Shown piece after piece: positions 6,725 to 46,280 of a stretch of DNA of 64,000 nt; within the stretch, counting starts at the first letter, position 1, and each line of letters starts with the position of its first letter. The stretch spans positions 19,457 to 83,456 of the forward strand of contig CALWRJ010000005.1 in assembly GCA_944383915.1 (NCBI GenBank), read 5' to 3'. The position numbers and the translations under genes were made by a program. The notes below the pieces were generated by a model. That model made no database searches. It was given only the letters and a program-made list of their open reading frames with translations, and was not told the origin of the DNA. This stretch comes from an uncultured Clostridia bacterium (GTDB taxonomy: Bacteria > Bacillota > Clostridia > Christensenellales > UBA1242).

Positions 6725-7053
6725 AATTTTAAACCTACTTTTGTATTTACTCAATTATATCAAAAAGACAAATAAAATTCAATAATAAAAACTACTATTT
6801 AAAAAACTTTAATATAACTTCATTTGTTATCCCCTATTTTAAAAACAAAAATTTATTTGAATACACGCCTTTTGCAAATCAAAATAAATTAATAACTATA
6901 CATAAATATGCATTTTTATTAAAAATAAAAACACTATAAAAAGTGCTTTCAATAATTAAAATATAAAATTTTAAAAAACCAAAAAATAAATTTAAATATA
7001 AAAAATAAGTACTATGCAATATACTATGCGTTGTTTTTTATTATAAAAAATTG
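6725..7053. other. AT-rich gap between sigF and nth with a pair of dispersed repeats
   Basis: No gene or convincing terminator was seen in these 329 bases. At 7008 to 7017 there is AGTACTATGC and at 7021 to 7029 ATACTATGC, both copies of the dispersed palindrome, just beyond the sigF stop. The rest is very AT-rich. Confidence 0.6.
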
Positions 7054-7773
7054 CTATTCTTTGAATTTTTTGCGCATAGTATCTATTACTTTATTTTCTA
7101 TACGAGAAACTTGTACTTGGCTTACACCTAATTCTTTCGCTATTTCGCTTTGTGTTTTATCGCGATAATAGCGCATAATTATAATTTTTCGCTCGCGCGG
7201 TGATAGCGTCGAAATCAATTCTTTTAGTATAAAGTGGTCTAATTTATTTTCCTCATCATCAGGGTCCGCTATGCGCTCACCTAATGTCACACTTCCTTCA
7301 TCGGTTGTATCAATTGGCGCAGAAAGACTCATTGGATATTTTACACTATCCATAGCAAAAATTACTTCTTGCGGATCTAAATTAAAATGGTTGGCTATTT
7401 CTTGTATATCAGGAGATTCATCATTAGGTAGGCTTTGAATATATTTTTTAATTTCAATTGCTTGGGCTTTTATGGCACGACTAACTTTAATATAGCCATC
7501 GTCTCGCAAAAAGCGTTTCACTTCTCCTGCTATCATTGGCACAGCATAAGTACTAAACTTTACATTATATGAACAGTCAAAATTATTAACTGCTTTTACA
7601 AAGCCGACACACCCAAGTTGAAATAAATCATCATAATCAACACCTTTATTACGATAACGCCTTATTACACTTTTTACGAGCGGATAATTTTGGTTGATAA
7701 GCATATTTTTGGCCGTCTCATCGCCCGCCTGCGCAAGTCTAATCAGCCTCAAAGTTTGCTCATAATCAACCAT
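7054..7773 (-). CDS. sigF: RNA polymerase sigma-F (forespore-specific)
   Basis: Sigma-F is the first compartment-specific sigma factor of sporulation and directs forespore transcription after polar division. Region 2 contains DYDDLFQLGCVGFVKAVNNFDCSYNVKFSTYAVPMIAGE, and the region 4 helix-turn-helix is KTQSEIAKELGVSQVQVSRIE. Its length of 239 residues and its place after spoIIAA and spoIIAB distinguish it from sigma-G or sigma-B. Its ATG overlaps the end of spoIIAB by eight bases and follows a TAGGGGGTG ribosome binding site. It is expected to be held inactive by SpoIIAB until SpoIIAA is dephosphorylated. Confidence 0.96.
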   Translation of the reverse strand: MVDYEQTLRLIRLAQAGDETAKNMLINQNYPLVKSVIRRYRNKGVDYDDLFQLGCVGFVKAVNNFDCSYNVKFSTYAVPMIAGEVKRFLRDDGYIKVSRAIKAQAIEIKKYIQSLPNDESPDIQEIANHFNLDPQEVIFAMDSVKYPMSLSAPIDTTDEGSVTLGERIADPDDEENKLDHFILKELISTLSPRERKIIIMRYYRDKTQSEIAKELGVSQVQVSRIENKVIDTMRKKFKE

Positions 7774-8224
7774 TTACACCCCCTATTGCGCTTTTTCGCC
7801 TTTCTAAAACTTTATGCATAAACACACAAACACCGCGCTTTCCATTTTTGCTTAAAACAACTTCATCCATAAAACTTTCCATAACTGTAAATCCCATTCC
7901 AGCGCGTTCATCATTCGGTTTTGTCGTAAAAAATGGTTCGCGCGCTTTGTTAAAGTCAGTTATTCCCACACCACTATCAAGTACTTTTATATCAATTTCG
8001 CGCGTATTGGTAAGCCCTACCCAAACTGTTATTTCCCCTTTTGTTTTAGGATATGCGTGGACCACGCAATTAGTAACAGCTTCGCTAACTGCAGTTTTTA
8101 TATCTGTTATTTCATCAAGTGTTGGATTAAGTTGCACACAAAAAGCGGCTACAGCACTTCGTGCAAAACCTTCATTTATCGAATGCGATTCAAAAGTCAG
8201 CGTCATTTCATTAATATAATTCAT
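7766..8224 (-). CDS. spoIIAB: anti-sigma-F factor and serine kinase SpoIIAB
   Basis: SpoIIAB binds and inhibits sigma-F and phosphorylates SpoIIAA. It has the GHKL ATPase boxes: the N box DIKTAVSEAVTNCVVHAYP, the G1 box VLDSGVGITD and the G2 box ERAGMGFTVMESFMD. At 152 residues it is slightly longer than Bacillus SpoIIAB because of a basic C-terminal end. The ATG follows TAAAGGAGTATTT. It is the middle gene of the spoIIA operon, ten bases after spoIIAA and overlapping sigF. Confidence 0.96.
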   Translation of the reverse strand: MNYINEMTLTFESHSINEGFARSAVAAFCVQLNPTLDEITDIKTAVSEAVTNCVVHAYPKTKGEITVWVGLTNTREIDIKVLDSGVGITDFNKAREPFFTTKPNDERAGMGFTVMESFMDEVVLSKNGKRGVCVFMHKVLERRKSAIGGVNG

Positions 8225-8234
8225 AAATACTCCT

Positions 8235-8543
8235 TTAATTTATTTTCGGCATTACATCATAAAGCGCCGTCATTTTAAAAATTTTATCTGCTTGAGCACT
8301 TGGGTTTGATATAAAAATTGGTAAATTTCGCTCTTTCATTTTTTTATATCGTCCTATTAGCACGCCTATCCCCGTACTATCCATAAAATCAAGTTGCGAT
8401 AAATCAATTATTACTTGTTTAAAATCTCCTTTTTCGAGTTGCTCATCCATTGTGGTTCGTGCATAATGTGCCGTATGCTCATCTAATTCACCCGAAATCT
8501 GTAGATACAAAGTATCAAGATATATTTTAGAATTTACTTGCAT
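8235..8543 (-). CDS. spoIIAA: anti-anti-sigma factor SpoIIAA
   Basis: SpoIIAA is the STAS-domain protein that displaces SpoIIAB from sigma-F when dephosphorylated by SpoIIE. The conserved phosphorylation site is Ser56 in FMDSTGIGVLIGR. The start at 8543 was chosen because a perfect AAAGGAGGT ribosome binding site precedes it and it gives 102 residues. Extending to upstream in-frame starts would add a hydrophobic, unconserved 26-residue segment. It is the first gene of the operon, as in Bacillus. Confidence 0.95.
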   Translation of the reverse strand: MQVNSKIYLDTLYLQISGELDEHTAHYARTTMDEQLEKGDFKQVIIDLSQLDFMDSTGIGVLIGRYKKMKERNLPIFISNPSAQADKIFKMTALYDVMPKIN

Positions 8544-8601
8544 AATACCTCCTTTGAGCATATATAATGAGTCTACATCAAATTTTCTTGCAAAAAATAA
8601 T

Positions 8602-8628
8602 AAAAATAGTGCTTTTAACACTATTTTT
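8602..8628 (-). terminator. terminator downstream of the subtilase gene
   Basis: AAAATAGTG and CACTATTTT arms surround a CTTTTAA loop. The site separates the spoIIA operon from the subtilase gene, in the right place to end some transcript on the minus strand; it lies between subtilase (stop at 8657) and spoIIAA, so it most likely ends the subtilase transcript. Confidence 0.7.
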
Positions 8629-8656
8629 GTCTAATTATGTATTAAATTTAAAAGCA

Positions 8657-9790
8657 TTAAAACTCAAAGCTTGCATAAGCGTCCAGCAAGCCCATTCCAC
8701 AATCATTAGGCTGGCAATCTAATTTTTGCGAACTGTACATTATTTTTGCCTTTATTTGATTAGGCGTAAGATACGGCTCGCGCTGTAATAAAAGTGTTGC
8801 AACGCCAGCAACAAATGGAGTGCTTACACTTGTGCCAGACATTTTTGTTAACAAATTCACATCATTAGAAAGAGAAGTAATATCAACCCCAGGCGCGACC
8901 AAATCAGGTTTAATTGTATCGAAAATTGGTCCACGAGAACTAAAGTCTGCAACTTTGGTTTGCTCGCCTGTTGTGTCAGCACAACCAACGGTTATAATTT
9001 TTGCACAACTTCCCGGTGATTTCACCGTTCCAGCATTTGGACCATCATTTCCAACAGCGCCAACCACCACAATTCCCGCATCCCAAAGGCTCGATGCTCC
9101 AAGGCTTAAAGGGTCATTGCGCGCAAGCGGAGTACTACCAAAACTCATACAAACAACTCTAATATTGTACTCGCTTTTATGTTCAAATACCCATTGCATA
9201 GCATCTAATACTTTAAATGCTTGTGTTTGACCATCATTATTTAGTGCTTTTAATATTATTAAATTACAGTCTGGCGCGATTCCGCAAAACTCCCCTGCAC
9301 TGCTTGCACCACTTCCAGCAAGCACGCCAGCCACAAAAGTACCATGACCATTGTCATCATATAAAATATTTTCATCATTAATAAAATCAACAAACTTAGT
9401 TACTCGATTTTTGCCAAGCAAGAAATCAACATGCGGATAACATCCGGTATCGATTACAGCAACAGTAACATTTGTTCCTAGATATCCCATTTTATGTAAT
9501 TGATTTACATTGACTTTTTCGCGTGCTTTATTCATTAAACATTGCGCTGTCGAAACTGATGAAATATAATTTACCCAACTTATTTGTGATAAAGAAAAAA
9601 TTTCCGCCGTGTTACTAGATATAGCAAAAGCGCGAATAAATGGGTATTCGCCTAAAATTTTTATATCAGGGTTGTTTTTTAATTTTTTTCGCGCTAAAAC
9701 AAAATTTTCAACATAGATAATACTATTTTGCATCTCTTTACTTGCAATTTTAACAACTAAAAGTTGGGGATCTATTTTAAATAAACACAT
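8657..9790 (-). CDS. S8-family subtilisin-like serine protease without signal peptide
   Basis: This 377-residue protein has the full subtilase triad: Asp in AVIDTGCYPH (near residue 114), His in DDNGHGTFVAG (near 148) and Ser in MSGTSVSTPFVAG (near 319). The oxyanion asparagine is in VGAVGNDG. About 100 residues precede the catalytic domain and resemble an inhibitor-like propeptide rather than a signal sequence, so it may act inside the cell or forespore, as do intracellular AprX/Isp-type subtilases. Its ATG lies immediately after the stop of the small gene at 9792, without a strong ribosome binding site of its own, which suggests coupled translation. Substrate and timing are unknown; the neighbouring spoIIA operon hints at sporulation but is separated by a terminator. 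Confidence 0.9.
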   Translation of the reverse strand: MCLFKIDPQLLVVKIASKEMQNSIIYVENFVLARKKLKNNPDIKILGEYPFIRAFAISSNTAEIFSLSQISWVNYISSVSTAQCLMNKAREKVNVNQLHKMGYLGTNVTVAVIDTGCYPHVDFLLGKNRVTKFVDFINDENILYDDNGHGTFVAGVLAGSGASSAGEFCGIAPDCNLIILKALNNDGQTQAFKVLDAMQWVFEHKSEYNIRVVCMSFGSTPLARNDPLSLGASSLWDAGIVVVGAVGNDGPNAGTVKSPGSCAKIITVGCADTTGEQTKVADFSSRGPIFDTIKPDLVAPGVDITSLSNDVNLLTKMSGTSVSTPFVAGVATLLLQREPYLTPNQIKAKIMYSSQKLDCQPNDCGMGLLDAYASFEF

Positions 9791-9791
9791 A

Positions 9792-10175
9792 CTAATCCAA
9801 AAAACTCATATAACTATACATTTTTTCCCGCTGTTCAGGAGTAAGCAATGGCGCAACACTGTTTGCCATTTCTTTAATTTTTTCAGCATCAAATGTGCCT
9901 TCGCGTTTTTTCTCCGCAATAAGTCGCATCATCTCGCTTAATAATTCTGGTTCGCTTTTTTCGCTATAATTTGCAATAAAATCTCGTACAGCATCGCCGT
10001 AATCATTTTCAATTTGCTTAAATTCGTCAGTATTTCTAATTTCCTCAAAGTTATTTTTTATATCTTTTTTCACCTCACCCTTTTTATCTTTTGAAACTTT
10101 TTCCTTCTCAAAATTTTTTTCGCTTTCTAAATCGTTACCTACATTTGTGTTTTCACTAAATTCTTTTAAATTCAT
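9792..10175 (-). CDS. small charged protein coupled to the subtilase
   Basis: I do not recognise this 127-residue protein. The first 45 residues are low-complexity and rich in lysine and glutamate. The rest is predicted helical and ends in MANSVAPLLTPEQREKMYSYMSFLD, a compact and probably conserved helical pair. It has no signal peptide or membrane segment. The ATG follows GGCGGTGAAAA. Its stop is one base before the start of the subtilase, so the two are co-transcribed and probably made together. A role as inhibitor, adaptor or substrate of the protease is only inference from position. Confidence 0.7.
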   Translation of the reverse strand: MNLKEFSENTNVGNDLESEKNFEKEKVSKDKKGEVKKDIKNNFEEIRNTDEFKQIENDYGDAVRDFIANYSEKSEPELLSEMMRLIAEKKREGTFDAEKIKEMANSVAPLLTPEQREKMYSYMSFLD

Positions 10176-10198
10176 TTTTCACCGCCTTTCACTAAAAC

Positions 10199-10218
10199 AA
10201 TATATGTCATCATATATT
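10199..10218. promoter_or_regulatory. palindrome in a divergent intergenic region
   Basis: AATATATG and CATATATT arms (8 bases each) flank TCAT. The site lies midway between the start codons of two divergent genes (10175 and 10235), where an operator would be expected. No known regulator consensus was recognised. Confidence 0.4.
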
Positions 10219-10234
10219 AAAGTGGTGATAACTT

Positions 10235-10729
10235 ATGGATATTTTTAGTATAATAAAAAATTTAGGCAGCGAAAATATAAGTGTTTTAATTAATGCTTTA
10301 TCAAAACTTTTTAGTCCATCACAAAACGATAATCCAAATCCCCCTTCGCCACCACCTGAAACAAAATCTTTTGATTTAAGCAACCCTTATTGGTCGTTGC
10401 CCAACTATGCACAAAATGTTAATAATAGTAGTACTATGCAAAACAAAAATCAATGCATAGTACATAATAACAGTGTCAATAATACTAATTTTTACGATAA
10501 TACACAAAAATCAAATCAGAGTTATAGCCAACAACAAAATTATCAATCTGCAGATAATCAACAGCAGACCAATCAAAATGGCGCTAACTTTATAGAAATT
10601 TTAAAAGTACTCCTTCCCCTTTTTACACAAGATGATAAAAATGCAACGCCTATAAAAGCAGAAAATAAAAGTGTAAATAGTGGAGAAAATTTTGAAATTT
10701 TAAAACTTAAAAAAACAAAAGACACATAA
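10235..10729 (+). CDS. small N/Q/S-rich protein carrying two repeat copies
   Basis: I do not recognise this 164-residue protein. It begins with a short helical segment (MDIFSIIKNLGSENISVLINALSKLF), followed by a proline-rich stretch and a long Asn/Gln/Ser-rich low-complexity region. A second short hydrophobic helix (FIEILKVLLPLFTQ) follows near residue 128. Two copies of the dispersed palindrome (10430 to 10439 and 10454 to 10463) are translated as part of the low-complexity region. The ATG follows AAAGTGGTGATAACTT. Its general build (short helix, prolines, low-complexity, repeat) is like that of the 103-residue protein at 28382. Coding is plausible from length and ribosome binding site, but a degenerate or rapidly evolving gene cannot be excluded. 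Confidence 0.6.
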   Translation: MDIFSIIKNLGSENISVLINALSKLFSPSQNDNPNPPSPPPETKSFDLSNPYWSLPNYAQNVNNSSTMQNKNQCIVHNNSVNNTNFYDNTQKSNQSYSQQQNYQSADNQQQTNQNGANFIEILKVLLPLFTQDDKNATPIKAENKSVNSGENFEILKLKKTKDT

Positions 10730-10736
10730 CTGTGTC

Positions 10737-11123
10737 TTACTCTAAATTTTGTAAACGCACGGACTTATTTGTTCGGCGTTTTCTTTTTTGCTCATATCTT
10801 TTTAAAATTAATAAAACATTAAGCGTTACTGCATCTTCAAAATTGCGGATATCTAAACCTAACATTCGTTTAATTTTTTCAAGTCTATAAAGAAGTGTAT
10901 TCCTGTGCACAATTGCATCTTTGCTAGTTTGGAGAATATTTAAGTTGTTTTTAAAAAACAATTCTGCTGTTGTTGTCAATTCATCATCATTGAAAAATTT
11001 TTGTACATTTTCATCTTGTAGCATATTGCTCACACTCCCTAAACTTTGCTCATCAAGGTTTGCAAGCAACTTACCCAAAAGTGATGAATTAATAGAAATT
11101 TTTTCAGTATAATCATTTCTCAT
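10737..11123 (-). CDS. PucR/CdaR-type C-terminal HTH protein
   Basis: This 128-residue protein corresponds to the C-terminal helix-turn-helix of PucR/CdaR regulators. The diagnostic segment is TAELFFKNNLNILQTSKDAIVHRNTLLYRLEKIKRMLGLDI followed by FEDAVTLNVLLIL. The sensory N-terminal domains of full-length PucR proteins are missing; only about 50 residues precede the HTH. The C-terminus is very basic (KRRTNKSVRLQ). It is probably a DNA-binding regulator, but targets are not evident. It converges with the gene at 10235 with only seven bases between stops. The ribosome binding site is a weak AGGT. Confidence 0.8.
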   Translation of the reverse strand: MRNDYTEKISINSSLLGKLLANLDEQSLGSVSNMLQDENVQKFFNDDELTTTAELFFKNNLNILQTSKDAIVHRNTLLYRLEKIKRMLGLDIRNFEDAVTLNVLLILKRYEQKRKRRTNKSVRLQNLE

Positions 11124-11223
11124 TTTTTTACCTAAACTTATTTTTTTATTTTTGTTTTGCTATTAAATAAACATTCATTTCTTTTAAATTTAGTAAAATC
11201 TTAATTTAGTAAATTAAACTTCA

Positions 11224-12213
11224 TTAATTTTTTGAGTCTTTCTTTTTAGAATTTTGTTCAGCATTAACTTGCGTAGACTTCTCTAATTCTTTTTCTTTAT
11301 TTTCGGCTTTTTCGCTCTCTTGTTTATTTACTTCGTCATTTTTAGCATTTTCTTTATCGTTTTTATTATCAACTATTTCTTGTTCTACAGTTGCCTTTTG
11401 AATTTTAGACTTTTCACTCTTAGATTGTTGCTTTGCCTTACTTTGAGAATTTGTCTTTTCCTTAACAATATTTTCAGCGTCTTTTTCTATAGTTTCAAAT
11501 TTTACCTCTACTTTTTCGTCTATTTTAGCTGTCTCTTTCCCTTTCTCTTTGTCCACTAAACTACCAGACTTAATCTCAATAAACTTATTAACAAAGCCCT
11601 CGCAAGATTTACGGTCTGTGCTTGTCATAATTATCACTTTATCTTTTGGAGCGCTATCAAAAAGCTTTAATAAAGCCTTTCTAATTCTCGCCTTTGTGTC
11701 CATATCGTCATACTCCGCCAAAACATCATCGCAAAGCACAATTTCAAGTGGACGCATAGACATACGCGCAATTTGGACAAGACGGCGATCGCTAGAACAA
11801 AGATTTTTCACCTTTTCATCACGGAGTCCTTCAATTCCATACTCTCGTAAAACATTTTCAATTCTCTCTTTTCTTTCGGCTTTGTCTACCTTGTGCACCT
11901 TTAAAGCCCACATTAAATTTTTATAAACGCTTTTGCGCTCAAAGAATACGGCTTTTGTAGATAAATAGCCGAGAGAAACATCGCGAGCAAAATTCACCTT
12001 GTTTACAGGAGTTCCTTTTAAAAGACACTCGCCTTCTTTTGCTTTTTCCAACCCAGCAATTAGACGAATAAGCGCAGTTTTACCACTTCCCGTATCACCA
12101 TAAATGCAAATACGGTCGCCTTTTTTTAATTCTAAATTAATGTCATAAAGCGCACAATAATCTTTGTTGTACGCAAGATTGACACCTTTTAATTCAATAA
12201 TATTTTCAGCCAT
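11224..12213 (-). CDS. ABC-type ATPase with degenerate motifs and K/E-rich tail
   Basis: Residues 1 to about 215 form an ABC ATPase domain with an intact Walker A (GDTGSGKTALIRL). The other motifs are degenerate. The LSGGQ signature position reads LCSSDRRLVQIAR, Walker B ends in CDD rather than DE, and the switch histidine is replaced (MTSTDRKS). Residues from about 220 to 329 are a low-complexity tail of lysine, glutamate, asparagine and alanine. No permease gene is adjacent, and the gene stands alone behind an AAGGAGATT ribosome binding site. It may act as a regulatory or structural ATPase (an FtsE-like role is possible), or as part of a complex encoded elsewhere. The fold is certain, the function is not. 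Confidence 0.8.
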   Translation of the reverse strand: MAENIIELKGVNLAYNKDYCALYDINLELKKGDRICIYGDTGSGKTALIRLIAGLEKAKEGECLLKGTPVNKVNFARDVSLGYLSTKAVFFERKSVYKNLMWALKVHKVDKAERKERIENVLREYGIEGLRDEKVKNLCSSDRRLVQIARMSMRPLEIVLCDDVLAEYDDMDTKARIRKALLKLFDSAPKDKVIIMTSTDRKSCEGFVNKFIEIKSGSLVDKEKGKETAKIDEKVEVKFETIEKDAENIVKEKTNSQSKAKQQSKSEKSKIQKATVEQEIVDNKNDKENAKNDEVNKQESEKAENKEKELEKSTQVNAEQNSKKKDSKN

Positions 12214-12365
12214 TTTAATCTCCTTATTTATTAATAATACACTTTTTAATGAATTTTATCAACTAAATATATTAAACTTTTAAATTATTTAATAAGTAAT
12301 TTTACTAGTCAAAACCAAAAATATTTGTTATAATAATTTATATTAATACTAAACGGAGAAATGAA

Positions 12366-13568
12366 ATGGATTTATTTGAAAAATGTGAAAAATTTTCAAC
12401 AGTGGACAAAGTAAAGGAAATGGGCATTTACCCCTATTTCCACTATCTAGAAAGCGGACAAGATGTTGTCGTAAACATGGAAGGCCACAGAGTTATAATG
12501 ATTGGTAGTAACAACTATCTAGGTTTAACTAGCCACCCCGAAGTTATCGAAGCAGGTATTGAAGCATACAAAAAATATGGTTCTGGTTGTTCTGGTTCGC
12601 GCTTCTTAAACGGAACTTTAGACTTGCATCTTGAATTTGAAAACGAACTTGCTAAATTTTTGCACAAGGACGAAGTTATCACCTTCGGTACAGGTTTTCA
12701 AAGCAATCTCGGAATTATCAGCGCGATTGCTGGGCGCAACGATGTAATTTTATGTGATAAAGAAAACCACGCAAGTATATATGATGGTTGTAGATTAAGT
12801 TATGCAAAAATGTACAGATACAACCACAGCGATATGGAAGATCTAGAGCGTAACCTTCAAAATATTCCACAAGATAAAGGAATACTAATCGTAACCGATG
12901 GTGTATTTTCTATGGGCGGTGATATTTGTAAACTCCCCGAAATTGTTACACTCGCTAAAAAATATGGTGCTCGCGTTATGGTAGATGATGCACACGGACT
13001 TGGAGTTTTCGGTGAACATGGTCGAGGCACTGCAGAATACTTTGGTTTGGAAGACGAAGTAGATATAATCATGGGTACTTTCTCAAAGAGCCTAGCAAGC
13101 CTTGGTGGTTTTATGGCTGCTAAAAAATATGTTGTAGAATATGTAAAACACAATTCGCGCCCTTTCATTTTTTCTGCAAGTATGACACCTGCAAATGTTG
13201 CTTGTGCTTTTGCCGCTCTTAAAATTTTGGAGCGCGAACCCGAGCGTGTAAAACATTTGATGGATATAACAAATTATATGCGCAACGCACTAAAAGAGCG
13301 AAATATCCCTATTCGCGAAAGCGTAGCGCCGATTATTCCTATTAATACCTATGATGACAATCGCACATTCTATGCTTGCAAAGTTTTGTTTGATAAAGGC
13401 GTATATGTAAACCCTGTAGTTAGTCCCGCTGTTCCTGTTGGTGATGCTATTATTCGCACAAGTTACACAGCAACGCATACAAAAGAACTTATGGACGAAG
13501 CAGCAGATATTATTCAAGATGTTTTTGAAAATGATTTACCTAATATGCCAGAATTTAAAATGGACTAA
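12366..13568 (+). CDS. alpha-oxoamine synthase, serine palmitoyltransferase-like PLP enzyme
   Basis: This 400-residue enzyme belongs to the alpha-oxoamine synthase family, which condenses an amino acid with an acyl-CoA using PLP. The Schiff-base lysine is Lys241 in TFSKSLASLGGF. The PLP ring contacts are His135 (NHAS) and Asp207/His210 (VDDAHGLG). The segments YPYFHYLESGQD, GSNNYLGLTSHPEV and SGSRFLNGTLDLH resemble, from memory, the serine palmitoyltransferases of sphingolipid-making Bacteroidetes more than Kbl, whose corresponding motif differs. Glycine C-acetyltransferase is the alternative. No tdh, bio or other lipid gene is adjacent, so context does not decide. The ATG follows CGGAGAA, and the gene has its own terminator. 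Confidence 0.85.
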   Translation: MDLFEKCEKFSTVDKVKEMGIYPYFHYLESGQDVVVNMEGHRVIMIGSNNYLGLTSHPEVIEAGIEAYKKYGSGCSGSRFLNGTLDLHLEFENELAKFLHKDEVITFGTGFQSNLGIISAIAGRNDVILCDKENHASIYDGCRLSYAKMYRYNHSDMEDLERNLQNIPQDKGILIVTDGVFSMGGDICKLPEIVTLAKKYGARVMVDDAHGLGVFGEHGRGTAEYFGLEDEVDIIMGTFSKSLASLGGFMAAKKYVVEYVKHNSRPFIFSASMTPANVACAFAALKILEREPERVKHLMDITNYMRNALKERNIPIRESVAPIIPINTYDDNRTFYACKVLFDKGVYVNPVVSPAVPVGDAIIRTSYTATHTKELMDEAADIIQDVFENDLPNMPEFKMD

Positions 13569-13584
13569 AAAATTAACATTATAA

Positions 13585-13620
13585 AAAGGATATCCTATCA
13601 TTAAGGATACCCTTTATTTT
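13585..13620 (+). terminator. terminator of the PLP enzyme gene
   Basis: AAAGGATATCCT pairs imperfectly with AAGGATACCCTTT, followed by ATTTTTTGTT. Confidence 0.8.
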
Positions 13621-13635
13621 TTGTTGTAATCATAA

Positions 13636-13664
13636 TAAAAAAGAAAGCGAGAAATCTTCTCGCT
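13636..13664 (-). terminator. terminator of the lipoprotein gene
   Basis: On the minus strand AGCGAGAA and TTCTCGCT form a perfect eight-base stem with a three-base loop, followed by TTCTTTTTT. Confidence 0.85.
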
Positions 13665-13758
13665 CTTTTCGTATAGGTCTACACTAAAAGAGTCGCCCGA
13701 GAAAAAAGTCCCGCTTTTTCTTAATTAAAATTGTTTCCTAAAATGAATAATTTTTCAA

Positions 13759-14379: not shown

Positions 14380-14421
14380 TTCTTTCTTCTTCTCTAATTT
14401 TTAACCGTTTAGGTTGATTTT

Positions 14422-22520: not shown

Positions 22521-22603
22521 TAGTACTATGTAACTTTTTAAAAAATCTAGTTTTTTAAATAACAACTATTCGCAAAACGGTTTGCATAGTACTGTGCATA
22601 GTA
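22521..22603. repeat. dispersed palindrome copies with AACTATTCGCAAAA motif
   Basis: The convergent gap 22336 to 22837 has no gene. It holds TAGTACTATG (22521), AACTATTCGCAAAA (22564 to 22577), GCATAGTACT (22584 to 22593) and GTGCATAGTA (22594 to 22603). The last three form a unit of about 45 bases, of which a diverged copy exists at 28713. Confidence 0.75.
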
Positions 22604-28381: not shown

Positions 28382-28693
28382 ATGAAAAAATTTGATTTTG
28401 TAGACAACGCTTATACCCCGCCTGTATTACCGCAATTTAATGATTCGAACGAAAACTCACCTTTTAATCTAAATAAATTATTGCAAATTTTACCCAAATT
28501 AAACCTAAATTTACTTTTTGGTGGTGCGAAAAACTCTGATAACTCTTTTCCATCAACACCTCAAAATCAACCTACTTTTGACACTAACCAAATTTTACAT
28601 AGGCAAAACACTATTGAAACTTTAAAAAGTATAAATAAACACAATGATTTAGTTAGACGCATTAATGACGAAGCAAATAGTACTATGCAGTAA
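28382..28693 (+). CDS. small proline/asparagine-rich protein ending in a repeat
   Basis: I do not recognise this 103-residue protein. A proline-containing start (YTPPVLPQF) is followed by a short leucine-rich helix (LNKLLQILPKLNLNLLFGG), a low-complexity region and a final charged helix. The last residues NSTMQ are translated from the dispersed palindrome (28679 to 28688), so the repeat forms the end of the frame just before the stop. The ATG follows AAAGGAAAATGTTTT. Its layout is like that of the protein at 10235. It may be a small sporulation-related protein, but that is speculation. Confidence 0.55.
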   Translation: MKKFDFVDNAYTPPVLPQFNDSNENSPFNLNKLLQILPKLNLNLLFGGAKNSDNSFPSTPQNQPTFDTNQILHRQNTIETLKSINKHNDLVRRINDEANSTMQ

Positions 28694-28712: not shown

Positions 28713-28748
28713 AACTATTCGCAAAATCGTATGTATAGTACGATGCAT
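28713..28748. repeat. AACTATTCGCAAAA motif plus diverged palindrome
   Basis: AACTATTCGCAAAA (28713 to 28726) is followed by TATAGTACGATGCATA (28733 to 28748). The unit aligns over about 45 bases with that at 22564 to 22603, with a few changes. It lies in a convergent gap. Confidence 0.7.
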
Positions 28749-34458: not shown

Positions 34459-34530
34459 AGTACTATGCACTCACTTTTGCGCATAGATACACTATTAAAA
34501 CCTAAATATAATTAAAAATTGCATAGTACT
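34459..34530. repeat. two dispersed palindrome copies
   Basis: AGTACTATGC at 34459 to 34468 and GCATAGTACT at 34521 to 34530, about 60 bases apart, in the gap where spmB and the gene at 34529 converge. The second copy provides the stop codon of that gene. Confidence 0.7.
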
Positions 34531-38855: not shown

Positions 38856-38904
38856 TTTGACTTTCTTTGACCTTTATTATATACTTATTATATGCAATTG
38901 TCAA
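38856..38904 (-). promoter_or_regulatory. perfect promoter with CtsR operator
   Basis: On the minus strand TTGACA (38904 to 38899) and TATAAT (38881 to 38876) with a 17-base spacer form a full-consensus sigma-A promoter. Just beyond the -10 box, GGTCAAA GAA AGTCAAA (38872 to 38856) matches the CtsR heptad direct repeat exactly. CtsR bound here would block the start site. Confidence 0.93.
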
Positions 38905-39167: not shown

Positions 39168-40409
39168 GTGGATAAAGTAATTTTGCATTGCGATTTAAAC
39201 AACTTTTACGCATCAGTTGAGTGCGTACAAAACCCTACCCTATGGACAAAGCCCGTGGCAGTAACAGGCAACCCGCGCACGCGTCACGGCATAATTCTTG
39301 CAAAAAACAATGTAGCAAAAAGTTATGGAATCAAGACTGCACAAACAATTTGGGAAGCCAAAAAATTATGTCCTAATCTTATTTGCCTTCCTCCTCAATT
39401 TGAATTGTACCAAAAATACAGCAAACAAGTTCGCGAAATATATATGCGGTTTACCGATAAAGTCGAGAGTTTTGGCCCTGATGAATGTTGGCTTGATGTC
39501 ACCCACTCTCAAAAACTTTTTGGTGATGGTAAAACGATTGCAGACAAATTGCGCAAAATTGTGAAAACAGAAACAGGCGGACTAACAATTTCGGTTGGTG
39601 TTTCTTTTAATAAATATTTTGCAAAACTTGGAAGTGACCTCAAAAAGCCAGATGCCACCACTGTTATAAGCAGAGAAAATTTCAAAGAAAAAATTTTTGG
39701 ACTTCCTGCCGATAACCTTATTTTTATAGGCAAACGAACTTTCCAAAAACTCAACAAACTAAATATTTTTACCATTGGCGACCTAGCAAACGCGGACGAA
39801 AGAACACTTGCATACCATTTTGGAATACTCGGTCCACAATATAAACGCATCGCCAGTGGTCAAGATGTAACTGAAATCGCGCACCAAGACTTTTTAGATG
39901 AAACAAAGTCTGTTGGTAATGGGATGACAGCTATTCGAAATCTAGTTTCGCGGGAGGAAGTAGAAATAATGGTACTCACCCTTGCAGAAAAAGTAACATA
40001 TCGTATGAGACAACTAGGACTAAAAGGACGGACTGCAAGATTAAGTATTCGTAATAGTGATTTGACGCATAGTTCTCACTCAATAACAAGCACAAAAGCC
40101 ATAGACAACGCAAACGATTTTGCCAAAATGTGTATGAATATTTTTGATACCTATTGGAAAAATTCTGCGCCGTACTCTATTCGCTCGGTTAGGGTCAGTC
40201 TATCAAATCTTGAAAAAACGAACAAATCTACACAAATAAACTTATTCGATTACCAAAAAGACGAAAAATTACGCAAACTAAACGAAAGCCTGGATAAAAT
40301 TCGCGATAAATACGGCTACTACTCTGTTCGGCGCGCAAAAACTATAAAACGCGACTTTATCAATTACTACGAAGCAGACGAAGAGGAAAATATTGACGAT
40401 ATGGAGTAA
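39168..40409 (+). CDS. dinB: DNA polymerase IV, Y-family translesion polymerase
   Basis: DinB copies damaged DNA templates. The catalytic acidic residues are Asp9 (HCDLNNFYASVE) and Asp105/Glu106 (SFGPDECWLDV). The palm, thumb and little-finger regions are complete in 413 residues. A C-terminal clamp-binding motif QINLF (near residue 374) would tether it to the beta clamp. The start is a GTG behind AAGGAGTAAGGAAA. A small XRE regulator follows. No LexA or other SOS box was identified in the upstream gap. Confidence 0.95.
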   Translation: MDKVILHCDLNNFYASVECVQNPTLWTKPVAVTGNPRTRHGIILAKNNVAKSYGIKTAQTIWEAKKLCPNLICLPPQFELYQKYSKQVREIYMRFTDKVESFGPDECWLDVTHSQKLFGDGKTIADKLRKIVKTETGGLTISVGVSFNKYFAKLGSDLKKPDATTVISRENFKEKIFGLPADNLIFIGKRTFQKLNKLNIFTIGDLANADERTLAYHFGILGPQYKRIASGQDVTEIAHQDFLDETKSVGNGMTAIRNLVSREEVEIMVLTLAEKVTYRMRQLGLKGRTARLSIRNSDLTHSSHSITSTKAIDNANDFAKMCMNIFDTYWKNSAPYSIRSVRVSLSNLEKTNKSTQINLFDYQKDEKLRKLNESLDKIRDKYGYYSVRRAKTIKRDFINYYEADEEENIDDME

Positions 40410-40414
40410 AAAAT

Positions 40415-40458
40415 ATGCTCAATTTTTGAGCAAGTCAACAAAATTGAGCATAATTTTT
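40415..40458 (+). terminator. terminator of dinB, overlapping the XRE gene promoter region
   Basis: ATGCTCAATTTT (40415 to 40426) and AAAATTGAGCAT (40440 to 40451) are a perfect 12-base inverted repeat with a 13-base loop, followed by AATTTTTAT. Because the XRE gene starts 21 bases later, it may also be an operator. Confidence 0.65.
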
Positions 40459-40472
40459 ATATTATTTATATT

Positions 40473-40730
40473 ATGATTAGTGAAAATTTAAAAAGTTTAA
40501 GACTTGAAAGAGGTCTAACTCAACAAAAACTTGCTTCTATATTTAAAACCTCGCGCCAAAATATTTCGCATTTAGAAAGCGGATACATTGAGCCAAACTG
40601 CGATATGCTACGCAAATATTGTGTATTTTTTGATATTAGTGCTGACGAAATTTTAGATTTAAACACCGAGAAAGACCGCAAAAGCTATTTAGAAAAAATC
40701 AATTTTGACAACTTACCTACTAAAAAATAA
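40473..40730 (+). CDS. XRE-family helix-turn-helix regulator
   Basis: This 85-residue protein is a Cro/CI-type HTH domain: LKSLRLERGLTQQKLASIFKTSRQNISHLESGYIEPNCDMLRKYCVFFDISADEILDL. It has little else and probably acts as a dimeric repressor. No ribosome binding site is seen before the ATG, so it may be leaderless or translated from a longer dinB transcript. The perfect inverted repeat directly upstream is a candidate operator for autoregulation. No toxin or phage gene is nearby. Confidence 0.87.
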   Translation: MISENLKSLRLERGLTQQKLASIFKTSRQNISHLESGYIEPNCDMLRKYCVFFDISADEILDLNTEKDRKSYLEKINFDNLPTKK

Positions 40731-40828
40731 ATTTATATTTTTCTTACAAACTACAATTTAAAATTTTTTTAATAAAACTGCAATTATATTTGCTGATGTA
40801 AAAATAACTTACGATTATAAAATAAAAA

Positions 40829-40858
40829 ATAGCACTTAATAATGCCGAAGTGCTATTT
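40829..40858 (-). terminator. terminator of the 277-residue orphan
   Basis: AATAGCACTT and AAGTGCTATT form a ten-base stem with an AATAATGCCG loop, overlapping the stop. On the minus strand it is followed by TTTTATTTT. Confidence 0.85.
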
Positions 40859-41691
40859 TATCTATTTCTTTCTATATCATTTGATGATTTGATGTTTGGT
40901 TTTTTTGAATTATTTATTGTCTTGTATAGGGGTAGCGTAAGTTCATTTTCTATGGAATCAATTTCATCATAAAAAGAATCATCAAAATCATCATTCTCTA
41001 CTTCACCTTTGTACGCAATGCCAAATTCAATGCGCAATTTATCAATTACGCTTTCGATTAAATAATAATTATTATCGTTAATTTCATCTATATAATTTGA
41101 AATTTCATCTCTAACAACATTTCTTATATGCTCATCGAAATTTTCATAATTTAAAATAGTACGCGCTTCTCTTTCATCATCTGCCACAATCATTTTTGCT
41201 TGACTATAATTTATCTCACCGAGGCGCGCAAGCAAAAATGCTTCATCATATTCCGCCGAGTACGAAACAAGTTTATCAATATAAAAAGGCTCTAATTTTT
41301 TACCAAACTCATCTATCAATGCGGAATTTGCCTTATCTACTGCGTCCCATATTAATAAAACTTGTTTCTCATCTTTTAAATTTTCTCCAATATAATTATA
41401 AGCCACGGTAAACATAGCGGCAAGTCTTGTACCAAAAGCGCAAGCCGAATTTTCGTGATTTAGCCCATTTTCTAGTAACTCTTTTATATCGAGAGGATTT
41501 GTAAATTGATAACATTCAACAATTTGTTTAACACGAGCAATACTAGGATAATCACCTAATTTTTGGAGTGCGCGCACACATTTATCTTTGTCTTTGTCGC
41601 AAATCACAAATTCACTATTCTTAATATCCGAAATTTTATCGGCATTATAATCTTTGATTATCGTAAACTCATAATCGTGTAACTTTTCCAT
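40858..41691 (-). CDS. orphan acidic protein of 277 residues
   Basis: I do not recognise this protein. It is acidic, rich in Asp, Glu and Asn, without signal peptide or membrane helices, and probably mainly helical. The C-terminal 20 residues are basic and low-complexity (NNSKKPNIKSSNDIERNR). A short stretch repeats the pattern of aromatic residues around helices, but no catalytic motif is visible. The ATG follows AAAGGATT. Between its own consensus promoter and terminator. Same style as the orphan genes at 14550 and 19171. Confidence 0.65.
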   Translation of the reverse strand: MEKLHDYEFTIIKDYNADKISDIKNSEFVICDKDKDKCVRALQKLGDYPSIARVKQIVECYQFTNPLDIKELLENGLNHENSACAFGTRLAAMFTVAYNYIGENLKDEKQVLLIWDAVDKANSALIDEFGKKLEPFYIDKLVSYSAEYDEAFLLARLGEINYSQAKMIVADDEREARTILNYENFDEHIRNVVRDEISNYIDEINDNNYYLIESVIDKLRIEFGIAYKGEVENDDFDDSFYDEIDSIENELTLPLYKTINNSKKPNIKSSNDIERNR

Positions 41692-41762
41692 AATCCTTTC
41701 CTTTTAGCATAAAAGTCACAAAATCACTTGTCGCGAAACTGCTAACAAAATTTATTTATTAT

Positions 41763-41791
41763 ATTATACAATCTTTTATGGGAAAAGTCAA
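41763..41791 (-). promoter_or_regulatory. sigma-A type promoter of the 277-residue orphan
   Basis: TTGACT (41791 to 41786) and TATAAT (41768 to 41763) on the minus strand, with a 17-base spacer. Confidence 0.75.
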
Positions 41792-41873
41792 TAGTAGCGA
41801 ATAAATACTAAATTTGAACAAAAAATTAAGTTTAATTTAAATTAATACACCAAAAATAACAAAAATTTAATAT

Positions 41874-41902
41874 TTGACAAAATCGCAAAAATATTATATT
41901 AT
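41874..41902 (+). promoter_or_regulatory. mnmA promoter
   Basis: TTGACA (41874 to 41879) and TATTAT (41897 to 41902) with a 17-base spacer, about 80 bases before the mnmA start. Confidence 0.7.
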
Positions 41903-41944
41903 TTAATATAAGATGTATTTGTTATTTTAAAAAATTTTATTTGA

Positions 41945-43060
<1,116 letters not shown>

Positions 43061-43078
43061 AAATAATAATAAAATTGT

Positions 43079-43144
43079 TGCATAATACTTATGCATAGTA
43101 CTGTTTTTTATGGTTTTTTAGACAATTTTACAATGCATAGTACT
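43079..43144. repeat. pair of dispersed palindrome copies after mnmA
   Basis: GCATAGTACT occurs at 43093 to 43102 (preceded by the related TGCATAATACTTAT) and again at 43135 to 43144, in the convergent gap between mnmA and ypeB. Confidence 0.75.
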
Positions 43145-43165
43145 TAATTTTACAAAATTAAAAGC

Positions 43166-43197
43166 AAAAAGAACGAGTAAAACACTCGTTCTTTTTA
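43166..43197. terminator. bidirectional terminator between mnmA and ypeB
   Basis: AAAGAACGAGT and ACTCGTTCTTT form an 11-base stem with a five-base loop; runs of A and T on either side make it functional for both genes. Confidence 0.85.
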
Positions 43198-43265
43198 ATA
43201 ATAAATTTACATCACTTTTTGCATTAAAAAACTATAGTATACATTTTATTTCGATGATATTTCTT

Positions 43266-44594
43266 TTACATCAAGAGATTTCCGTCATCAGTTTCTACGA
43301 CTTTCAAAATATTGACCTGCTTGCCTGTTTCTGCATTAACATAAATATAATAAGTCGCACCATCATTTACACACATAAACTCATAAGTTAATGTTTCACC
43401 GATATAGTCATTTGGAATAATTGCTAGTTTTGTTGTACGCACATCCATATCACTTGTTAAAGCACTGCGAGCGGTTATTTCATTAATTTCGGGTGATAAA
43501 TTATTGCGTTCTGTATGATTATATGCCCAAGAGCGCGCTTCCCAGCCAACTATTTCTCCACTATCTTGCGCAACTTTTACTTTTATTAAATCAGGATAAA
43601 TTATAACATCATTCATTATTGGAGTTAAATTTACATAGACAAACCCATTACTTGCAGTACTCCAAACGCCTTTCATATCACTAAAACCTAGATTGGTTGC
43701 AAATGTTTCAGCAATTGTCACGCACTCGTCCTCATTTTTTGTACTACTACCAGCAGTGTAACCGCTATTTAGTTGCAACAAAATTCCATCACGCTTCGTA
43801 ACTTGTGCATAGTATTCCGTTTCACCCTTAGAAAGTGTGAAATTAAATGTTTTAAATTCGCCCTTTGTTTCCCCGTTCGCTGAAATTAAATAATCAGGAA
43901 ACCACTCTTTCATTCGAGCAAGAGCCTCTTCGGCGTTAATTTCATTAGTCGATAAACCATTAATTTCTTTATTCGTTACCGAATCACTAAACGGGCCATC
44001 ATAAATTAATTGTGGATATTCAACAATATCATTATTTAAACCGCTGAATTGACTATCAAAATCGCTACTATCAATATTTGGGTCTTTTATATTATCAACA
44101 ATTGAATAGCCTCCTGCAAGCATTACAGACAACCTATTAAGTTCATACTTAATATTTTGGCTTGAAGTGTGTAAACTTTCGATTTGGTCCATATCATCCA
44201 TACTAATTTCTTGTCCATCTGCAATATTTTGTTGCAAAACTAAACAAAATCCACTCAATTGGTTGATAAAAGTTGTTGTGTCGTTTATTGCATTATGATT
44301 TATAGGCAAAGTCGCTATATTATCTTGCGCCGAGTTTGATAACGCAACAATATTTGCTAAATATTTTTCTTGGACTGATTTATCGGTTGAAACCTTCAAT
44401 TTGCTTAAATTAGACTCAATATTATTGATATTTTCTGCTAATTCATAAAAATTTTGCTCATAGACATATTCTAGTTGCATTTTATATGAGCCAAGTTGAT
44501 TTGCTGTCATTCCCCAATTTATTCCTGTATAAGTAATTGCGCCAGCCACAACCACACACGCTAGCACCAGCGCAACTATTGCACCTTTTTTCAT
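43266..44594 (-). CDS. ypeB: YpeB, partner of cortex-lytic enzyme SleB
   Basis: YpeB is required for the localisation and stability of SleB in the spore. Residues 1 to 25 form a membrane anchor (GAIVALVLACVVVAGAITY), followed by a helical YpeB N-terminal domain (WGMTANQLGSYKMQLEYVYEQNFYELAENINNIESNLSKL), and then PepSY-like domains in the second half (EALARMKEWFPDYLI; GETEYYAQVTKRDGILLQLNSG). The start at 44594 is set by AAGGAGGTTTTA. It is downstream of sleB on the same strand, the usual arrangement, although separated by more than 200 bases containing repeats. Confidence 0.95.
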   Translation of the reverse strand: MKKGAIVALVLACVVVAGAITYTGINWGMTANQLGSYKMQLEYVYEQNFYELAENINNIESNLSKLKVSTDKSVQEKYLANIVALSNSAQDNIATLPINHNAINDTTTFINQLSGFCLVLQQNIADGQEISMDDMDQIESLHTSSQNIKYELNRLSVMLAGGYSIVDNIKDPNIDSSDFDSQFSGLNNDIVEYPQLIYDGPFSDSVTNKEINGLSTNEINAEEALARMKEWFPDYLISANGETKGEFKTFNFTLSKGETEYYAQVTKRDGILLQLNSGYTAGSSTKNEDECVTIAETFATNLGFSDMKGVWSTASNGFVYVNLTPIMNDVIIYPDLIKVKVAQDSGEIVGWEARSWAYNHTERNNLSPEINEITARSALTSDMDVRTTKLAIIPNDYIGETLTYEFMCVNDGATYYIYVNAETGKQVNILKVVETDDGNLLM

Positions 44595-44727
44595 TAAAAC
44601 CTCCTTAAAGTTTAATTTTATAGAAATCACAAAATAGTAATTGATAATAATTTTCTTTTATTTTTAAATAAAATCTTTGCAATTTCTACTCTTTTAAATA
44701 TTTTTTCGCAAGCGTTTTTTTATTTTA

Positions 44728-44808
44728 AGTACTATGCATATTTTAAAATAATACAGTATTATGGCATAAAATTATGCGCAAATTTAGTATTATGCATAGT
44801 ACTATGCA
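44728..44808. repeat. dispersed palindrome, including a perfect 16-base copy
   Basis: AGTACTATGC at 44728 to 44737 and the complete palindrome TGCATAGTACTATGCA at 44793 to 44808. They lie between sleB and ypeB. Confidence 0.8.
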
Positions 44809-44810
44809 CG

Positions 44811-45491
44811 CTATCTAGCAAAATTATGCTTACCAATAGTTGTTATAATTTCGCGCGACCATATCCAACTACTTGTTGCTGTATCAGGGTTGTAATAATA
44901 GATTGCTCCATAAGTTGGGTCCCACCCATTTAACGCATCACGCGCAGCATTATATGCCGTTTGATTTGGTTCAAGATTAATTTGTCCGTCACTAACGCAA
45001 GTAAAAGCGTACGGCTGGTAAATTACACCGTAAATAGTATTTGGGAACGAACTGCTCTCCACCCTATTTAAAATAACCGCACCAATTGCCACTTGCCCAA
45101 CATATGGCTCACCGCGCGCTTCAGCATAAATACATTTTGCAAGCAAATATAAATCATTGCTACTTTGACTAGACAGACTCATTCCAAGCGCTGCAGCCGT
45201 TTCACTACCAACTATTCCGTCAACTTGCAAACCGTTATTGCGCTGAAACCAAATGACCGCATTGCGAGTTTGTGAACCGTAAATTCCATCAACAGAACCT
45301 GTATAATACCCCCAATTTTTAAGTTTTTGCTGAATTGTTTTAATTTGCGAAGTTGTTAGCCCTGTTTCAATCACTTGGTCAACATTATATGTCATAGGGT
45401 TATAAATACCAACTATACCAACAGCAATAATTGCACCCAAGCACAAAAACAAACCTAAACTTTTAAAAACTTTTTTCGCCTTATCACTCAT
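44811..45491 (-). CDS. sleB: spore cortex-lytic enzyme SleB
   Basis: SleB is a lytic transglycosylase that degrades muramic-lactam cortex peptidoglycan at germination. A membrane-anchored or signal N-terminus (residues 10 to 30) is followed by a peptidoglycan-binding domain (IKTIQQKLKNWGYYTGSVDGIYGSQTRNAVIWFQRNNGL). The Hydrolase_2 catalytic domain comes next, with CIYAEARGEPYVGQVAIGAVILNRV, which holds the catalytic glutamate. The end YNPDTATSSWIWSREIITTIGKHNFAR is also typical. The ATG follows GGGAGGGGGAA. Upstream of ypeB and after spoIIR. Confidence 0.97.
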   Translation of the reverse strand: MSDKAKKVFKSLGLFLCLGAIIAVGIVGIYNPMTYNVDQVIETGLTTSQIKTIQQKLKNWGYYTGSVDGIYGSQTRNAVIWFQRNNGLQVDGIVGSETAAALGMSLSSQSSNDLYLLAKCIYAEARGEPYVGQVAIGAVILNRVESSSFPNTIYGVIYQPYAFTCVSDGQINLEPNQTAYNAARDALNGWDPTYGAIYYYNPDTATSSWIWSREIITTIGKHNFAR

Positions 45492-45629
45492 TTCCCCCTC
45501 CCAGATTTTAAATTGATTGTTAATTTTAATTAACCATAAAAAAGCATAAACTTTTTTGAGAATTATACCTTTTTTGTTAATTTTAATACTAAAATTGGTT
45601 AAAAAACTTAATTTTTAAAGAAAAATAGA

Positions 45630-46172
45630 CTAATTAAAGAATGAATTAATAATTTCGACTAATTTAGAACGATATACAACATTTTGCGAACCGTCATCAA
45701 CAGTGTTTACAAAACATAGTGGCGGATAAACTACGCACCACCAATTATTCCCTTCCGCACTCCCTAGTTCTACAATTAAACTATCATATTCTCCACTTTC
45801 TAAAACCACCCCATCGTATGAGCGCGTAGGAAAATATTCACTCCGTAAAACAGCCTTTGCCCCATAAGTATAACCGTTATTCTCTAAAACTGTACTTGCG
45901 ATTTTGCTTAATTCGTCCAAATTTTCACTAACACACAAAATCGCGCTCTGCTTGTCTGTGGCGTCAGCAAGAATTGGTGTAAGATAACTTGTTATTGCAT
46001 CTTTTACCAAATACTTAACACTTTGGTCGTCATCACTATTACTATTTGCTCTAATATGTATCCTTAAAAAACTATCTGGTGTTAGTTCTGTACTTTTACC
46101 TACGCTAACACCAACAATACCAACTATTATTAATAATAAAACTAAAAAAATAATACCTATTTGTTTTGCCAT
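45630..46172 (-). CDS. spoIIR: SpoIIR, forespore signal for pro-sigma-E processing
   Basis: SpoIIR is made in the forespore under sigma-F and exported to trigger SpoIIGA to process pro-sigma-E. An N-terminal membrane segment (IGIIFLVLLLIIVGIVGVSV) is followed by the conserved LRIHIRANSNSDDDQSVKYLVKDAI, then by SGEYDSLIVELGSAEGNNWWCVVYPPLCFV, which is diagnostic. The start at 46172 is set by AAGGGGGAAATT. It is 150 bases after sipL and 138 before sleB. The 180-residue length is normal. Confidence 0.96.
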   Translation of the reverse strand: MAKQIGIIFLVLLLIIVGIVGVSVGKSTELTPDSFLRIHIRANSNSDDDQSVKYLVKDAITSYLTPILADATDKQSAILCVSENLDELSKIASTVLENNGYTYGAKAVLRSEYFPTRSYDGVVLESGEYDSLIVELGSAEGNNWWCVVYPPLCFVNTVDDGSQNVVYRSKLVEIINSFFN

Positions 46173-46244
46173 AATTTCCCCCTTAATACAAACTATTGAC
46201 AAAACAAATTTTGTTATACCTATATAATTTATTTTTTATAAAAA

Positions 46245-46280
46245 AGTACTATGCATAGCGAAAACTATATGCATAGTACT
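46245..46280. repeat. pair of dispersed palindrome copies between sipL and spoIIR
   Basis: AGTACTATGC at 46245 to 46254 and GCATAGTACT at 46271 to 46280, both with extra matching bases (GCATAG and TATGCA), 16 bases apart and oriented so as to form a larger inverted pair. Confidence 0.75.

What the first reader, a model, noticed from the sequence alone, without database searches (positions are those of the whole stretch)
7008..46280. Dispersed palindrome TGCATAGTACTATGCA, many copies in gaps between genes
The ten-base half GCATAGTACT or its complement AGTACTATGC occurs exactly at 3393, 7008, 10430, 22584, 28679, 34459, 34521, 43093, 43135, 44728, 44793 (full 16-base palindrome), 46245 and 46271, with close variants next to many. 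Chance expectation for such a ten-mer in 64 kb is well below one. Copies often come in pairs 15 to 70 bases apart, and four of the sites lie in gaps where genes converge. Conserved genes are free of it. This looks like a selected site (DNA-binding protein, chromosome organisation, methylation or a mobile short repeat) and I know of no described family with this sequence.
Basis: partly seen in the sequence, partly recalled or inferred. Interest (0 to 1): 0.75.

Follow-up and report, generated by a model that had tools for sequence, protein, structure and literature searches.

The report
Helix-phased ten-base anchor sites
A strictly fixed ten-base DNA word is scattered through the gaps between genes of some uncultured Clostridia, spaced in step with the turns of the DNA helix and set in phased A/T-rich DNA, which suggests docking sites for an unidentified protein that bends or wraps the chromosome.

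Summary
In detail: GCATAGTACT occurs 14 times in the window (0.11 expected) and 64 times in the 1.18-Mb genome (backwards control 0). The unit is the 10-mer TGCATAGTAC (81 per genome), not the 16-base palindrome. It is sharp: 55 copies against 0.6 expected in 391 kb, one-base variants at 0-4 each except TGCATAATAC (25) and TGCATAGTAT (7). Neighbouring copies, in any orientation, lie about 12, 22, 32, 42 and 52 bp apart (best period 9.9 bp, 0 of 500 nulls). In genus g1 the flanks carry AT/GC waves of 10.6 bp to about 55 bp on each side, and AA/TT phasing is about double that of word-free gaps. Copies favour gaps, convergent ones most, show no strand bias, and some persist unchanged between species whose flanks have diverged. 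This points to docking sites for a cooperative protein that reads double-stranded DNA and bends or wraps about 120 bp. The protein was not found; parS/Noc, TrpR, Lrp, RNA hairpins and Y1-transposase repeats were tested and not supported. Gyrase or another wrapping protein remains open.

The parts
3392..3401 (+). word TGCATAGTAC inside ORF 3037-4008, followed by degenerate units
   Evidence: ORF without Pfam hit
7009..7018 (-). word, between a HhH-GPD glycosylase gene and the 3' end of a sigma factor gene (sporulation sigma-F like by its neighbours)
   Evidence: my gene caller extended a frame over it
10431..10440 (-). left arm of inverted pair, inside ORF 10235-10729
   Evidence: ORF without Pfam hit
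10454..10463 (+). right arm of the same pair (13-bp spacer)
22583..22592 (+). word in convergent gap, with degenerate units beside it
28680..28689 (-). word near the end of a doubtful short ORF 28382-28693; degenerate copy at 28732
34460..34469 (-). word in convergent gap
34520..34529 (+). word in the same convergent gap, 60 bp on
43092..43101 (+). word in convergent gap beside a mnmA-like gene; TGCATAATAC variant 13 bp before it
43134..43143 (+). word in the same gap, 42 bp on (four helical turns)
44729..44738 (-). word in the gap between a ypeB-like and a cell-wall-hydrolase (sleB-like) gene
44793..44808 (.). perfect 16-base palindrome = two words sharing GTAC, same gap
46246..46255 (-). left arm of inverted pair in the sipL-spoIIR gap; a site in this gap also in 4 related genomes
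46270..46279 (+). right arm of the same pair (14-bp spacer)

Best explanation
The word is the recognition core of a dispersed DNA element, about 120 bp long in genus g1, that a sequence-specific protein binds as double-stranded DNA. Several protein units dock on one face of the helix, because words are spaced by whole turns in any orientation, and the flanking DNA, with A/T tracts repeated every 10.6 bp, bends or wraps around them. Roughly a hundred such anchors, mostly in gaps and most often between converging genes, most likely structure the nucleoid or manage supercoiling locally, as BIME/gyrase sites or Noc sites do elsewhere. Shown: word, sharpness, spacing, phased flanks, lack of strand bias, gap preference, retention between species. 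Inferred: that a protein binds, that it wraps, and the nucleoid role.
For: Genome-wide excess. Sharpness: TGCATAGTAC 55 vs 0.59 expected in 391 kb of this genome; one-base variants 0-4 each except TGCATAATAC 25 vs 1.4 and TGCATAGTAT 7 vs 1.0. Spacing: 85 direct or inward spacings of 10-70 bp, best period 9.8, R 0.63, 0 of 1000 jittered nulls; from listed coordinates of three genomes, 76 spacings, period 9.9, R 0.61, 0 of 500. Flanks: GC wave of 10.6 bp at 244 sites, 0 of 300 rotated nulls, also at 21 sites without a second word (two mismatches or fewer) within 90 bp; random gap positions z -0.5 to 0.6; AA/TT phasing above word-free gaps, P 8e-10 and 2e-7. No strand bias in tandem gaps, 70 sense vs 75 antisense. 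Pairing inside and outside inverted pairs at chance in 14 of 15 positions. Convergent gaps with a site 15 of 79, other gaps 30 of 394, P 0.003. Retention: orthologous gaps pooled 9 both, 13 one, 111 none, P 1.3e-6; G044 vs G088, 3 of 5 gaps with all words identical (60 of 60 bases) at flank identity 60-73%.
Against: No cognate protein was found. One member of the genus, G068, has 3 copies of GCATAGTACT and no comparable replacement word in 574 kb, so the system can be missing. In genus g16 the flank wave is weak (z 2.2) although word spacing is phased there. Without spacings of 14 bp or less the best period becomes 19.7 bp, about twice the helical repeat (47 spacings, R 0.45, 3 of 1000 nulls). 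G044 alone fits 12.4 bp best, and G000 alone is weak (13 spacings, 27 of 500 uniform and 17 of 500 jittered nulls). Of word-free gap windows 15% reach the median GC phasing of the sites. Two of five aligned gaps show loss or moving of a word. Pooled species pairs are not independent, and G000 stretches were partly chosen around hits.
Confidence: 0.55

Rival explanations
1. Strong DNA gyrase sites, comparable to BIME-2 or the Mu site: gyrase wraps about 130 bp whose GC content varies with a 10-bp phase, and removes positive supercoils between converging genes; the word would favour cleavage or loading.
For: Phased GC wave over about 120 bp and convergent-gap preference resemble the 130-bp gyrase motif with phased G/C variation and the gyrase-rich BIME-2 elements described in PMC6379681 (abstract and passages read).
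Against: The described gyrase motif is degenerate, while here ten bases are nearly invariant. Gyrase is universal in bacteria (recalled), yet many relatives lack the word. The described motif has a 36-bp centre between periodic arms, while here the wave is strongest within 40 bp of the word.
Confidence: 0.15
2. Operators of one large transcription regulon, with a cooperative repressor or activator controlling the neighbouring genes.
For: Recurrent placement beside the same genes, for example spoIIR (5 genomes), parA (8), rnpA (6), mnmG (4); phased operators are typical of cooperative regulators (recalled).
Against: Convergent gaps, where no flanking gene starts, are favoured; divergent gaps are not (7 of 85 against 23 of 309 tandem); the word is sharper than usual operator sets (comparison recalled).
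Confidence: 0.15
3. DNA uptake words as in Neisseria or Haemophilus, kept by biased uptake during competence.
For: Sharp lineage-specific 10-mer, copies in gaps and in some low-constraint coding stretches, turnover between species; a ComEC domain is present in 18 of 18 genomes.
Against: ComEC is equally present in word-poor genomes. Helical spacing and phased flanks are not expected for uptake words (inference). Density only about one per 15 kb in this genome.
Confidence: 0.06
4. A mobile REP- or MITE-like short repeat.
For: Dispersed pairs and inverted pairs; scattered across genera and another family; Y1-transposase remnants in 3 carriers.
Against: No shared sequence beyond about 11 bp among 178 copies; remnants are split or carry stops and lie in 3 of 10 g1/g16 genomes tested; one-base decay variants are nearly missing.
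Confidence: 0.05
5. RNA hairpins acting as transcription terminators.
For: Inverted pairs can fold and some are followed by T runs.
Against: Direct pairs are about as common; pairing beyond the arms at chance; no sense bias; a separate stem-loop with a T run stands just after the word at 43134.
Confidence: 0.04

Closest known systems
BIME-2/REP elements and strong gyrase sites (Escherichia coli; PMC6379681, abstract and passages read)
   Same: Dispersed gap elements; about 130 bp with 10-bp phased GC content; linked to supercoiling and gene ends
   Different: REPs share a longer sequence and a transposase origin (recalled); gyrase motif is degenerate; here a nearly invariant 10-mer and phased multiple words
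Noc binding sites / parS (Bacillus; PMC7383237, passages read)
   Same: Fixed short words on the chromosome, bound by a specific protein
   Different: Different sequence; one strong ParB-type match per genome, the extra matches in G000 and G010 being short, no Noc paralogue seen; parS-like sites exist separately; no clear clustering near parB
RefZ binding motifs (Bacillus; PMC6657595, passages read)
   Different: Only five sites, at conserved positions relative to oriC; here about a hundred
HIP1 (cyanobacteria; PMC4390886, abstract and outline read)
   Same: Over-represented short word of uncertain role, rare or absent in some relatives
   Different: HIP1 is tied to methyltransferases; its one-base deviations fall at the first and last bases; far more frequent (recalled), no helical spacing known to me
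DNA uptake sequences (Neisseriaceae; PMC3630211, listing only)
   Same: Sharp lineage-specific words with dialects
   Different: No helical phasing expected; denser (recalled)

Membership tests
parS / Noc site | sequence TGTTTCACGTGAAACA (parS, recalled) or its Noc variant | tested here: not met
   word unrelated; parS-like sites found separately near parB in G000, G053, G107 and, fewer, in G044, G088, G068; none with two mismatches or fewer listed for G016
parS / Noc site | second ParB-family protein (Noc) in carriers | tested here: not met
   one strong PF17762 match in each of 18 genomes; extra matches in G000 (21.5 bits, below cut-off) and G010 (two, about 23 bits, just over it) are short
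parS | clustering near the origin | tested here: inconclusive
   genes near sites, median distance from parAB on the G068 map: G000 174 kb vs 164 kb for all mapped genes; G044 64 vs 169 kb; the map covers about 41% of G068
REP / RAYT element | intact Y1 transposase in carriers | tested here: not met
   matches in 3 of 18 genomes, split or with stops
REP / MITE | shared sequence longer than the core | tested here: not met
   178 copies in register, strong information only in about 11 bp
gyrase strong site / BIME-2 | phased GC variation over about 130 bp | tested here: met
   10.6-bp wave out to about 55 bp on both sides in g1; weak in g16
gyrase strong site / BIME-2 | gyrase binding or cleavage | not testable with these tools
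   needs Topo-Seq
Lrp/AsnC phased wrapping sites | Lrp/AsnC protein in carriers | tested here: not met
   PF01037 in 0 of 35 genomes of the family searched; in 5 of 5 outside it
TrpR/YerC operator (outline recalled) | Trp_repressor protein in carriers | tested here: not met
   0 of 19 genomes of the family over the cut-off, 7 with weak matches below it; present in G225
DNA uptake sequence | sequence-specific uptake receptor | not testable with these tools
   ComEC present in 18 of 18, uninformative
HIP-type word | cognate methyltransferase | not tested
   no methyltransferase or methylation data examined
intrinsic terminator | RNA stem kept by compensatory changes | tested here: not met
   31 two-unit inverted pairs, pairing at chance for 14 of 15 positions, one outer position P 0.036

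The most novel reading that the evidence does not exclude
A bacterial nucleosome-like positioning system: an unidentified protein recognises a nearly invariant 10-bp word and wraps about 120 bp of curved, helically phased DNA at roughly a hundred fixed places, giving these small-genome spore formers a sequence-programmed chromosome architecture.
Probability: 0.25. Interest if true: 0.85.

Novelty: new variant of a known kind. Interest (0 to 1): 0.66.

Why it matters
Bacterial nucleoid proteins mostly read DNA loosely (recalled). A set of sites with a nearly invariant core, whole-turn spacing and phased A/T tracts would make chromosome folding readable from sequence in an uncultured lineage, and would give a direct way to fish out a new architectural protein.

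Tried and rejected
parS or Noc sites: separate parS-like sites exist and there is one strong ParB match per genome. Origin clustering: not seen in G000, suggestive in G044. TrpR/YerC, suggested by a recalled likeness of operator outline: not over the cut-off in the family. Lrp/AsnC: no match in the 35 family genomes searched. The small HTH_30 protein at 10737-11123 looked promising because it was not found in the held part of G068 beside its neighbour's orthologue, but the wider search found it in G068 and in word-poor genomes: rejected. RNA hairpins, mobile repeat, sense-strand RNA signal. A replacement word in G068: none in 574 kb. Viral contigs: no inverted pair. In G225, of another family, the word often comes as a palindrome plus a second word 28 bp away; the inner parts looked complementary in some of the five places read, a hint of hairpins there that I did not test.

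Literature: the word occurs in 16 papers (listing only; the titles are not of bacterial chromosomes, so I take these to be primers, not checked); no paper holds Christensenellales with repeat, motif and intergenic; a search on uptake words, Firmicutes and palindromes listed 5 papers, none on this word by title. Nothing wider is claimed.
Full report
Observation. The listed copies are all there. The window is G000:C5:19457-83456 of a 1.18-Mb, 23-contig genome that holds 64 GCATAGTACT and 81 TGCATAGTAC, backwards controls 0. The window carries a sporulation sigma factor with its anti-sigma and STAS neighbours, a YpeB-like protein, a cell wall hydrolase, SipL and SpoIIR, so the host is a spore-forming Clostridia relative.

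Distribution. Of 198 genomes of the family, 120 hold GCATAGTACT, mostly a few times. Genus g1 is rich, from 12 to 81 copies in 8 of 10 genomes (G003 has 10, G068 has 3), and so is g16 (80, 34, 67). Of 396 genomes of the order searched, G225, of another family, has 43 TGCATAGTAC and its family mate G248 has 11. A scan of named genomes for inverted pairs gave 75 stretches, 48 of them from the six records above; viral contigs gave none.

The unit. In 391 kb of G000 (partly chosen around hits) TGCATAGTAC is found 55 times against 0.59 expected. Its one-base variants sum to 59 against 20.1 expected; 32 of these are TGCATAATAC (25) and TGCATAGTAT (7), the others 0 to 4 each. G044 shows the same, with 36 copies, 11 and 13 of these two variants, and a third, TGCAAAGTAC, at 6. 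Among 178 copies, some from loci fetched for their inverted pairs, flanks carry no strong shared sequence beyond a purine before GTAC. In G068 no comparable word stands out.

Placement. In G000, 41 of 55 copies lie in predicted gaps against about 9 expected, 13 in predicted genes against 45.6, one at an edge (a home-made gene caller, and at least the gene calls at 7009 and 28680 are doubtful). Gaps of 20 bp or more with a site: convergent 9 of 37 and 6 of 42, tandem 13 of 153 and 10 of 156, divergent 3 of 39 and 4 of 46 in G000 and G044; convergent against others P 0.003. In tandem gaps orientation is even, 70 to 75.

Spacing. Neighbouring words lie 6 (overlapping), 11-14, 20-25, 28-36, 41-45 and 51-53 bp apart, with few in between, in direct, inward and outward order. 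Of 85 direct and inward spacings of 10-70 bp the best period is 9.8 bp (R 0.63, 0 of 1000); without those of 14 bp or less it is 19.7 (R 0.45, 3 of 1000). On coordinate listings, cut by the tool (100 of 107 copies for G044, 50 of 81 for G000, 100 of 121 for G016), 76 spacings give a best period of 9.9 bp, R 0.61, 0 of 500 nulls; G044 and G016 alone 0 of 500 each, with best periods 12.4 and 9.6; G000 alone is weak, 27 of 500.

Flanks. Around 244 g1 sites GC content swings between about 0.08 and 0.45 with a 10.6-bp period within 40 bp on both sides, fading by 60-80 bp; 0 of 300 rotated-flank nulls reach it. The set includes loci fetched because they held inverted pairs. It also holds for 21 sites with no other word (two mismatches or fewer) within 90 bp, for 154 sites from stretches not fetched for pairs (z 20.4) and for 56 copies of the TGCATAATAC variant (z 9.0). 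Random gap positions give z -0.5 to 0.6; of five control words with enough copies, four gave z 0.7 to 2.6, and AGTACTATAA, which shares part of the word, gave 4.1; g16 gives only z 2.2. Site by site, AA/TT phasing is about double that of word-free gaps (36 sites in G000, 20 in G044), though 15% of word-free gap windows reach the sites' median GC phasing. Spacers of inverted pairs hold an A4 or T4 tract in 28 of 31 (14.8 after shuffling) and their pairing is at chance in 14 of 15 positions. In part the wave may come from degenerate words with three or more mismatches; either way the element spans several helical turns.

Conservation. Pooled over ten species pairs, 9 orthologous gaps hold a site in both, 13 in one, 111 in none (P 1.3e-6, pairs not independent); G044-G088 alone 4, 1, 32. 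In five aligned G044-G088 gaps words are identical in 20/20, 20/20, 10/20, 4/10 and 20/20 bases, 74 of 90 in all, against flank identity of 57-73%, 662 of 996; the 10/20 case lost one word, in the 4/10 case the word moved. One of these gaps (C4 at 4485, 73%) includes the small yidD gene, which my caller missed (compare), so its flank is partly coding. The sipL-spoIIR gap holds a site in five genomes, parA's upstream gap in eight.

Mechanism. Sharp core, whole-turn spacing in any orientation, phased A/T tracts and no strand bias are best explained by a protein that reads double-stranded DNA, binds cooperatively on one face and bends or wraps it. That is inference; no protein was identified. Tested and not supported: ParB/Noc, TrpR/YerC, HTH_30, Lrp/AsnC, Y1 transposase. 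ComEC is uninformative. DNA gyrase remains a serious alternative: PMC6379681 (abstract and passages) describes a 130-bp motif with phased 10-bp G/C variation and enrichment in BIME-2 and downstream of highly transcribed operons.

Limits. Draft genomes only; about two fifths of the window's genome held as sequence; ori mapping on one 574-kb contig of G068; no expression, binding or methylation data.

Noticed in passing
G000 stretches, (e.g. L002 near the sites): Even more abundant short repeats: AGCAATTAGCA 198 times in 371 kb, apparently tandem AATTAGC heptads, plus related AATTAGGA and CCTTAACTGC words; a second, unrelated repeat family.
   Followed up: no
G044 stretches: What looks like a longer dispersed repeat containing GTCATCCTGA and AGATCCTTCG, 10-17 copies of its 10-mers in 410 kb.
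   Followed up: no
G225 contigs (L300-L318): In another family the word often comes as palindrome plus a second word 28 bp away, a fixed layout with changing spacer; some spacers look self-complementary.
   Followed up: partly
family genomes near parB: parS varies between genera: TGTTTCACGTGAAACA, TGTTTCATGTGAAACA, TGTTCCACGTGGAACA, TGTTCCACATGGAACA; none with two mismatches or fewer listed in G016.
   Followed up: partly
G000:C7:1772-2101, G044:C8:29007-29338, G053:C13:25775-26132: Interrupted Y1 transposase remnants.
   Followed up: no
G044:C1:1-40000 and G000:C23:100001-148731: Only 14 and 11 predicted genes in 40 and 49 kb, suggesting very large genes.
   Followed up: no
window 60263-60666: tmRNA gene next to smpB.
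   Followed up: no
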